Source: Bdellovibrionales bacterium | GTDB lineage: Bacteria; Bdellovibrionota; Bdellovibrionia; Bdellovibrionales; UBA1609 | Direction of reading: 5' to 3' | DNA length: 46,613 nt | Assembly: GCA_007128005.1 (NCBI GenBank) | Contig: SKYF01000080.1 | Span: 1-46,613 of the forward strand | Shown: positions 15,670-19,599 of the stretch, piece after piece | Layout of the letters: every line of letters begins with the position of its first letter | Position numbering within the stretch: the stretch's first letter is position 1 | Notes under the pieces: generated by a model | The model's input: the letters and a program-made list of their open reading frames with translations, nothing else | The model's database searches: none | What the model was told of the DNA's origin: nothing | Translations under genes and position numbers: made by a program

Positions 15670-16278
15670 TCAATGAATCCACTGAAAAAGACGCTCCCAA
15701 CGCACCGAGGGCCATTGCCTGTGCTCTGTCCCCCTGTCCCAATCTAAGGATAGCCAAATCATAAGAACCCTGCCGTCCAAATCCTCAACCCTAACGGCCC
15801 CCCAAGATCTGGAGTCTTCTGGGCTCTGCAAATCATCTGAAAGAGCAAAAAAATGCCCGGGAGGCACCACAACAGGGCCATAGGCAGCCAAACCAGCTGA
15901 AGCAGGGGGGAACCCCTGAGCTTTCTCATTGATGAAGAGCCCGCCTTCCCTGATCTCAAGCCTGTCCCCCTCCACTGCGGCCACTCTTTTCAGACAGCGC
16001 TTTTGCCTAAAACCTGGGCAGCGAAAAACCACTATCTCACCTCGTTTTGGCGGACGGCCCTGCCATGTCTTTTTCTCGACAAAGGGCCAACGCAGCCCAA
16101 AGGGAATTTTGTAGGCGAGGACAAAATCTCCCCTTACCAAGGTGGGAGCCATACGATCCGAGGGAATCCGATAGGCCCCGACAACAAATAATCTCACCAG
16201 CAAAGCCAAGACAATGGCGAGAATCAGACTTTCAGCGTAGTCACGCAGAACAATTCTAAGGGACTCACTCAATCCCAT
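15670..16278 (-). CDS. Signal peptidase I-like paralog, predicted catalytically inactive (Ser to Arg)
   Basis: S26 fold motifs AYRIPSDRMAPTLVRGDFVLAYKIPFGLRWPF, CLKRVAAVEGD, DSRSWGAV; expected PSGSM reads PSDRM (R42). Confidence 0.88.
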   Translation of the reverse strand: MGLSESLRIVLRDYAESLILAIVLALLVRLFVVGAYRIPSDRMAPTLVRGDFVLAYKIPFGLRWPFVEKKTWQGRPPKRGEIVVFRCPGFRQKRCLKRVAAVEGDRLEIREGGLFINEKAQGFPPASAGLAAYGPVVVPPGHFFALSDDLQSPEDSRSWGAVRVEDLDGRVLMIWLSLDWDRGTEHRQWPSVRWERLFQWIH

Positions 16279-17020
16279 GAAAAAACCGATTCCAGCGCAA
16301 CTTCAGTGGATGACACAGAAATGGTAAAAAAGGCAAGGTCTCCTCACAGCTCAGCCAAACAAACATGGCTCGTCCCAAAAGCTTATCTTCAGGCCAACTC
16401 CCCCAAGCTCGACTGTCCTTGGAATTATCGCGACTGTCACCCATCAAAAACAGGTGACCATCAGGAACAATAAAAGGGCGATCACTCCACCGATAGCTTT
16501 GCTTCATAAACATAACCCGATAAGAGCCTGCGTCCAGAGTCTCCTCGTAAAACCTAAAGACATCAAAAGGCCCACCCAAGTCAGCTGGGGTCGCAGGATA
16601 ATAAGGGGCCTGATCCCCATTTTCCGGCGAGGGCAAAGCCGTTCTAGGCACTGGCTCCCCATTGATAATCAGCTCCCCGTCTGAGCTGTATTCCACCTTA
16701 TCCCCCCCAATACCTATCACCCTCTTGATCATAAAGTACTCTGAGCTGTTGGGAGCATAGGGCTCTTTAAAGCGAAAGACGACGACTTCTCCTCTTTTGG
16801 GACTGTCTCGCTTTAAAAGCCAACGGTCCGTAAAAGGGACACGCACTCCGTAGGCCAATTTATTTACCAAAATATGATCATGAATCAAAAGAGTGGGAAT
16901 CATGCTCCCTGATGGAATCACATAGGGCTCCACCAAGAGCCAACGCAAAGTGAGTATGGCTAGTATAGCTAAAGCAAACGATAGGAAACTTGAAGCTAGG
17001 CTCTGTCTATTCTCATCCAT
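16265..17020 (-). CDS. lepB: Signal peptidase I
   Basis: VIPSGSMIPTLLIHDHILVNKLAYGVRVPF, FMIKRVIGIGGDKV, GDSRDNSKDSRAWG. Confidence 0.95.
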   Translation of the reverse strand: MDENRQSLASSFLSFALAILAILTLRWLLVEPYVIPSGSMIPTLLIHDHILVNKLAYGVRVPFTDRWLLKRDSPKRGEVVVFRFKEPYAPNSSEYFMIKRVIGIGGDKVEYSSDGELIINGEPVPRTALPSPENGDQAPYYPATPADLGGPFDVFRFYEETLDAGSYRVMFMKQSYRWSDRPFIVPDGHLFLMGDSRDNSKDSRAWGSWPEDKLLGRAMFVWLSCEETLPFLPFLCHPLKLRWNRFFHGIE

Positions 17021-17041: not shown

Positions 17042-17803
17042 TTACTGCACTCTATGAAAGAACCGCCCCCACCGCAAATGAAAGGGGTGACATAAAAAGG
17101 TCAAAACAGGGAGCGTCTGTTCACAACTCAGCCAAACGAACATGGCCCTACCCACCAAGTGATCTCTAGGCACAAAGCGCTTATCCTCCCCCCAAGCCCG
17201 ACTGTCTTGCGAGTTGTCTCGATTGTCTCCCAACACAAAAAAATGCCCTTCGGGTACGGTGTAGGGCCCAAAAGAGAGGTTCACCGGCTCTCCTTTGCGC
17301 AAGAGTGTGCTGTACGTGCGCTCTCCTAAGGACTCCTCCCAATGCACGTAGTTTTGCACAGCGCCTGACGCTTCCTCCCCCAAAAAGTCTGCATCCCTCA
17401 ACCAGGCTGCATCCCCAGCCCTCTTTTGGGGAACTCTTTTTTCCACTAAACGCTCATTCACATAGAGGTTTCCATTCTCATAAAAAATTCGGTCCCCTGA
17501 GACTCCAACAACCCTTTTTATGTAAAATTGGCTGATATCTTGGGGGTACTTAAATACGACAACCTCCCCGGGTTGAGGCTCGTTGAGTCTCACTATCCAC
17601 CTTTCGGTAAAAGGAACCCTCACCCCATAAACCACTTTATTCACAAATATGTGATCCCTTACCAATAGGGTGGGCAACATGCTGCCAGAGGGAATGACGT
17701 AGGCCTCCATAAAGGCCCAGCGGACAAGAAGAGCAATGGCTATGGCAATAATGAATGAGCCGAGGCCCTCGGTCCAAAACCTCCTTTTGCTCACCCTACT
17801 CAA
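17042..17803 (-). CDS. lepB: Signal peptidase I
   Basis: [58 protein letters not shown]. Confidence 0.95.
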
Positions 17804-19599
17804 TCCTCCACTTTTAAGATTGCCAAAAACGCCTCCTGTGGAACCTCCACTCGGCCAATCTGCTTCATACGTTTTTTACCCTCTTTTTGCCGTTCAAGAA
17901 GTTTGCGCTTTCTACTAATATCGCCCCCATAGCATTTTGCTGTCACGTCTTTTCTCAAAGCCCCTATGGTTTCACGAGCTATGATCTTGGCTCCCACGGC
18001 AGCCTGAATCGCAACTTGAAACTGCTGCCGGGGAATCACCTCTTTGAGCTTAGCTACAAGAGCTCTGCCTCGAGCATAGGCCTTGGATCGGTGAACAATC
18101 ACCGAAAGAGCATCCACAGGCTCGGTGTTGAGAAGAATGTCCATTTTTACTAAGTCGGCAGTTTCATAGCCTACCAACTCATACTCCATCGATGCATAGC
18201 CCTTAGAGATCGACTTCAAGCGATCATAAAAATCCATCACCATTTCATTGAGCGGAAGTTTATACTCAATCACAACCTTGGTGGAGGTAATGTACTCCAT
18301 CTTTTGCTGAAGGCCTCTTTTTTCCTCACAGAGCTTGAGAATGCCCCCAATGTACTCAGAAGGCGTGTGCAAGCTGAGTTTTACATAGGGCTCTTCAAGA
18401 TGCTCAATCAAATTGGCCGCAGGCAACTGGGCAGGGTTCTCCAACTCGAACTGCTCACCCCCAGTCGTGAATACCTTATAAACCACCGATGGAGCCGTCG
18501 TGATCAAGTCCAAGTTGAACTCGCGCTCCAATCTCTCCTGAACGATCTCCATATGCAGTAAACCTAAAAAGCCACAGCGAAAGCCAAAACCTAGCGCCGC
18601 AGACTTCTCTGTTTCAAAGCTCAAACTGGAGTCATTGAGGGTCAGCTTTTCTAAGGCTTCTTTTAGAGCCTCAAAATCTGAGGACTCTACAGGAAAAATC
18701 CCTGAAAACACCATGGGCTTCATCGGCTGAAAGCCCGGCAAGGGTGCTTGAGCCCCCTGCTTGGCGTGAGTGACTGTGTCCCCTACCTTGACATCGCGGA
18801 TATCTTTAATCCCACAGATAAAAAACCCAACTTCGCCCGCCGCCAAAGCCTCCATGGGTTGGGAGAAGGGAGCAAAAACCCCGAGCTTCAATATTTGATA
18901 GCTGCGATCTGTTTGCATAAAGCGGATCTGATCTCCCACCCGCACCTGTCCATCCACAATCCGACATAGGACGATCACGCCCTGATAAATATCAAACCAA
19001 GAGTCAAAGATAAGAGCCCTGAGGGGCAGTGCTCTGTCCGCCTTTGGAGGAGGAACTTTCTGAACAATGGCCTCAAGAATTTCGTCGATCCCCTTCATCT
19101 CTTTCGCACTGGCTAAAATAGCCTCAGAAGCATCTAAGCCAATAGCATCTTCGATCTGCTGCTTGACTCCATCGGGGTCTGCGGCAGGGAGATCAATTTT
19201 ATTGATCACCGGAATGATTTCTAAGTTATTATCTAGAGCCAGATACACATTGGCCAAAGTCTGCGCCTCTACTCCCTGAGCTGCGTCTACAACCAGGAGC
19301 GCCCCCTCACAGGCCGCCAAGGACCTCGAGACCTCATAGGAAAAATCCACATGTCCAGGAGTATCAATCAAGTTTAACTGGTACTCCAACCCATCACGAG
19401 CCCGATAAATCAAGCGGACCGTCTGGGCCTTAATAGTAATTCCCCTCTCACGCTCTAGATCCATATTGTCGAGAAATTGATTTTTTTTCTCACGATCAGA
19501 AAGCGTTCCGGTTGACTGAAGCAAGCAGTCCGCCAAAGTCGACTTCCCATGGTCAATGTGCGCTATAATTGAGAAGTTACGAATATTTTCCGGCTTCAT
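17800..19599 (-). CDS. lepA: Elongation factor 4 (LepA)
   Basis: [38 protein letters not shown]-terminal [21 protein letters not shown]. Confidence 0.98.

What the first reader, a model, noticed from the sequence alone, without database searches (positions are those of the whole stretch)
15670..16278. Signal peptidase paralog with catalytic Ser replaced by Arg
Three type I signal peptidase genes lie in tandem. The first two have the canonical PSGSM box and IKR Lys motif. The third reads IPSDRM (codon 16153-16155 = Arg42), so the residue matching E. coli LepB Ser90 is Arg, while the Lys-containing motif (CLKRVAAVEGD) and DSRSWG box are kept. The frame is intact and overlaps its neighbour by 14 nt, which suggests selection for a non-proteolytic function such as a regulatory subunit or substrate-holding pseudoprotease, rather than recent decay.
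Basis: partly seen in the sequence, partly recalled or inferred. Interest (0 to 1): 0.75.

Follow-up and report, generated by a model that had tools for sequence, protein, structure and literature searches.

The report
Dead signal peptidase with cysteine clamp
A bacterial gene that looks like the enzyme cutting export tags off proteins has lost its cutting residues, and so have most of its counterparts in one family of Bdellovibrio relatives, yet it is still preserved and carries a unique pair of cysteines, so it probably kept a job that needs no cutting.

Summary
P3 (15670-16278, -) is the third of three tandem type I signal peptidase genes and has Arg42 at the position of LepB Ser90. The active site is more broken than reported: Gly272 is Ser147 and Ser278 is Pro153; only Lys97 stays. 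The window lies in Bdellovibrionales, where lepA-adjacent P1-P2-P3 triplets are widespread. In other families P3 usually keeps the complete catalytic set (53 of 69). In the window's family only 1 of 24 does: Ser90 is absent in 20 of 24, replaced by A, T, N, M, V, I, L, H, D or R. Arg itself is not conserved; the same-genus copy has Ser but also lacks Gly272 and Ser278. These copies are under purifying selection, and all 24 carry two cysteines (C87, C95) flanking the hairpin loop before Lys97, absent from every other P3, P1 and P2 examined. I read this as a non-proteolytic signal-peptidase-fold protein, probably disulphide-stapled, kept for a binding or partner role beside the still active P1 and P2; the partner is inferred, not shown. 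Inactive signal peptidase homologues are known from Gram-positives (SipA, SpsA), so this is a new variant of a known kind. The gene is accessory: about half of the family lacks it.

The parts
15670..16278 (-). P3: signal peptidase I-fold protein, 202 aa, catalytic Ser replaced by Arg
16153..16155 (-). codon of Arg42 (position of LepB Ser90)
16018..16020 (-). codon of Cys87 (LepB Tyr135 position), first of the conserved Cys pair
15994..15996 (-). codon of Cys95 (LepB Tyr143 position, two before the Lys), second of the pair
15988..15990 (-). codon of Lys97 (LepB Lys145, general base), kept in 19 of 24 family members
15838..15840 (-). codon of Ser147 at LepB Gly272
15820..15822 (-). codon of Pro153 at LepB Ser278
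16265..17020 (-). P2: intact signal peptidase I (PSGSM, IKR); Ser kept in 35 of 35 P2 of the family
17042..17803 (-). P1: intact signal peptidase I (PSGSM, IKR)

Best explanation
P3 of this family of Bdellovibrionales is a pseudo-signal peptidase: a protein with one N-terminal membrane helix and a periplasmic signal peptidase fold that no longer cleaves signal peptides. It descends from a third, originally active copy in the lepA-P1-P2-P3 cluster. At the base of the family it gained two cysteines that flank the hairpin loop leading to the Lys strand, most likely forming a disulphide that staples the fold; after that the catalytic Ser, the Gly272 and Ser278 contacts and in some lineages the Lys were free to drift. 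What is kept is the scaffold and the hydrophobic cleft residues, so the protein most likely acts by binding, either as a non-cutting partner of P1/P2 made from the same gene cluster or as a holder of exported precursors. Shown: loss of catalytic residues, orthology, purifying selection, Cys-pair conservation, predicted fold. Inferred: lack of activity, the disulphide, the order of the changes, the binding partner.
For: Complete catalytic set in 1/24 family P3 against 53/69 other P3, 31/35 and 34/34 of the family's P1 and P2. Ser90 column is among the more variable (78th percentile of entropy) in family P3 while Arg146, Asp273, Ser281, C87 and C95 are invariant. Cys pair 24/24 in family P3, 0 in other P3, P1, P2, kept even where Ser and Lys are both lost (G033, G006, G023, G035, G130); the loop between them varies from 6 to 16 residues. 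Holding family P3 as one clade raises the likelihood by 16 (AU p 0.78), so one gain is enough. Sister family f11 in the same class has PTGSM or PSNSM and no Cys pair, so the active form is ancestral. Low dN/dS in Ser-less copies. AlphaFold2 model pLDDT 91; best PDB matches are LepB (E 1.8e-11), and SipA, an inactive homologue, with TMt 0.77. S1/S3 hydrophobic positions kept.
Against: P3 evolves faster than P1/P2, is absent from roughly half of the family's genomes (mostly small ones) and is degenerate in G012, so a slow decay is not excluded. Four family copies still have Ser, one (G008) with the complete catalytic set plus the Cys pair. No interaction or activity data.
Confidence: 0.62

Rival explanations
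1. SipA-like chaperone: P3 uses its intact peptide groove to hold particular exported precursors or pilin-like proteins without cutting, independent of P1/P2.
For: S1/S3 hydrophobic positions are kept in family P3; SipA is an inactive signal peptidase homologue required for pilus polymerisation and matches the model.
Against: Residue 42, at the mouth of the S1 pocket, takes large side chains (R, M, H, L, I) in some species, so the pocket is not uniformly preserved; no pilus or sortase genes seen beside it; the gene is beside P1/P2.
Confidence: 0.2
2. Slow decay: P3 became redundant once P1 and P2 covered all substrates, lost the active site first, and is being lost lineage by lineage.
For: Recurrent Ser loss, faster evolution than P1/P2, absence from about half of the family, degenerate copies in G012 and, outside the family, G038, G040, G089.
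Against: Purifying selection with saturated dS, intact frames, 17 invariant columns and a fully conserved newly gained Cys pair in Ser-less copies.
Confidence: 0.14
3. A different catalytic centre: P3 is still a protease with Cys95 (two residues before the Lys) or another residue as nucleophile.
For: Cys95 is invariant and, by strand alternation, points to the same side as Lys97 (inference); it replaces the residue at LepB Tyr143.
Against: Cys87 is equally invariant, which fits a disulphide; Lys97 is lost in 5 of 24 while both Cys stay; Gly272 and Ser278 contacts are lost in most.
Confidence: 0.04

Closest known systems
Streptococcus pyogenes SipA (PDB 4n31; PMC4049620)
   Same: Signal peptidase I fold with Ser90 replaced (Asp48) and no detectable peptidase activity; Gly272 and Ser278 also replaced; predicted model of P3 matches it
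   Different: SipA also lost the Lys (Gly85) and lies in a Gram-positive pilus locus; P3 keeps Lys, has a Cys pair, and lies beside two complete signal peptidases in a Gram-negative
Staphylococcus SpsA (PMC12445088)
   Same: Inactive, dispensable signal peptidase I paralogue accompanying an active one, SpsB
   Different: Lacks two catalytic residues; no Cys pair is mentioned in the passages read; different phylum
Bdellovibrionaceae-like family f8 P3
   Same: Orthologue at the same place in the triplet
   Different: Mostly PTGSM with YVKR, complete catalytic set in 39 of 47, no Cys pair
E. coli LepB (1b12, 9nlo)
   Same: Fold, Lys145, Arg146, Asp273, Asp280-Ser281-Arg282
   Different: P3 has one membrane helix and lacks Ser90, Gly272 and Ser278

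Membership tests
Peptidase S26A / signal peptidase I (as a fold family) | sequence match to PF10502 / TIGR02227 above cut-off | tested here: met
   107.7 bits vs 22.9; 118.6 vs 47
Peptidase S26A / signal peptidase I (as a fold family) | signal peptidase fold | tested here: met
   AF2 pLDDT 91; LepB and SpsB among the top PDB matches
Active signal peptidase I | catalytic Ser at LepB 90 | tested here: not met
   Arg42; Ser in 4 of 24 family orthologues
Active signal peptidase I | general base Lys145 | tested here: met
   Lys97; 19 of 24
Active signal peptidase I | Gly272 and Ser278 around the Lys | tested here: not met
   Ser147 and Pro153
Active signal peptidase I | cleavage of pre-proteins | not testable with these tools
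   needs a bench assay
SipA-type inactive homologues | signal peptidase fold without a Ser-Lys dyad | tested here: met
   Ser missing, so no dyad, though the Lys is present
SipA-type inactive homologues | role in sortase-built pili | not tested
   no pilus gene among the immediate neighbours seen; genome not searched

The most novel reading that the evidence does not exclude
Family P3 is an obligate, disulphide-stapled non-catalytic subunit of P1 or P2, making a heteromeric signal peptidase in a Gram-negative bacterium that selects or holds substrates for the active subunits.
Probability: 0.25. Interest if true: 0.75.

Novelty: new variant of a known kind. Interest (0 to 1): 0.5.

Why it matters
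Signal peptidase I is treated as a stand-alone enzyme in Gram-negatives (general knowledge). A conserved, apparently dead paralogue beside two live ones in Bdellovibrio relatives, with a clade-specific Cys pair and closely related families in which the same gene still has a complete active site, is a natural series for asking how a protease becomes a pseudoenzyme and what non-cutting job the fold can do.

Tried and rejected
Rejected: sequencing error (two adjacent residues changed, and relatives show the same loss). Rejected: alternative Ser nearby (positions 39-41 are variable in the family; Ser156 and Ser177 are also nearly invariant in P1/P2, so structural). YN00 dN/dS failed on most saturated pairs. 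Literature searches for Bdellovibrio signal peptidases or pseudoenzyme signal peptidases found nothing relevant in the held library; absence there is not proof of absence. Disulphide geometry could not be measured because coordinates are not returned. The free quick P3 tree scatters the family's P3 on weak branches; the one-clade test was run to settle this.

Full report
What is there. On the minus strand lie lepA (17800-19599), P1 (17042-17803), P2 (16265-17020), P3 (15670-16278), then pyrB, carA and carB (names of the non-peptidase genes by their sequence, from general knowledge). P1-P3 are the only PF10502 proteins in the genome. P3 is a clear family member by profile, with Arg42 where LepB has Ser90. 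[quoted passage not shown]

Relatives. Triplet loci were fetched from genomes of the same order. The order is Bdellovibrionales: contig G138:C393 has the length (8083) of JAGRAK010000082.1, titled Bdellovibrionales bacterium, and a Pseudobdellovibrio locus carries the same triplet. A tree resolves P1 and P2 and a faster-evolving P3 set. In P3 outside the window's family the dyad is mostly intact, and strictly PTGSM in the large genus g38. In the window's family (f1) 24 usable P3 copies have S90 in 4, K145 in 19, G272 in 8, S278 in 10 and all four in 1 (G008). The four Ser copies include the same-genus G001 (PSDSM), but G001, G034 and G135 lack G272 and S278.

The Cys pair. Every usable f1 P3 has C87 and C95, and no other P3, P1 or P2 examined has the pair. 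Both cysteines remain where Ser and Lys are gone. They bracket a loop of 6 to 16 residues between two predicted strands (82-86 and 94-101), which fits a disulphide at the base of a hairpin, in the periplasm (inference). Forcing f1 P3 to be one clade improves the likelihood, so one origin is sufficient; the free quick tree had weak deep branches and scattered them. P3-like proteins in a sister family of the same class have Ser, Lys and no Cys pair.

Selection. Synonymous sites are saturated, but nonsynonymous change is low: window vs G001 P3 dN 0.30, dS 2.80; G004 vs G140, both Thr at the site, 0.216 and 1.953. One-ratio codon omega is 0.033 for Ser-less P3, 0.071 for P2, 0.061 for P1; the values are rough because of saturation. 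The Ser90 and Ser278 columns are in the 74th-78th percentile of variability in f1 P3 while neighbouring structural residues stay fixed. This is the pattern of a fold kept and a catalytic centre released.

Mechanism. P2 keeps Ser in all 35 f1 copies and P1 in 32 of 35, so cleavage is covered. P3 keeps the membrane helix and fold and the hydrophobic cleft positions. A non-cutting partner or precursor holder is the simplest account; between these the data do not decide. Decay is the main rival because P3 is missing from about half of the f1 genomes and degenerate in one, but decay does not explain a newly gained and then invariant Cys pair.

Place among known things. Inactive signal peptidase homologues exist in Gram-positives (SipA, PMC4049620; SpsA, PMC12445088). 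This differs in lineage, in keeping the Lys, in the Cys pair and in standing beside two complete paralogues. I file it as a new variant of a known kind.

Noticed in passing
L035:4582-5592, L044:3050-4090, L047:3058-4098: P1 itself has lost the catalytic Ser in three other genera of the family (STSDM, SSQGM, PLQGM; the last also Lys to Arg), leaving P2 as the only complete signal peptidase of the cluster there.
   Followed up: partly
L045:5095-5604, L070:3225-3752, L073:1879-2457, L229: Short or strongly diverged P3 copies, apparently decaying, in G012, G038, G040 and G089.
   Followed up: no
L227 (G083): Four signal peptidase genes in the cluster instead of three.
   Followed up: no
L215 (G070): P1 and P3 are about 4 kb apart, so something may lie inside the usually tight triplet.
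   Followed up: no
window family f1: Genomes without P3 are mostly the small ones (about 1.2-2.1 Mb), those with it mostly 2.4-4.2 Mb; incompleteness was not corrected for.
   Followed up: partly
window:16265-17803, C-terminal SCExTLPxxxFLC of P1 and P2: P1 and P2 share a different conserved Cys pair near the C-terminus that P3 lacks.
   Followed up: no
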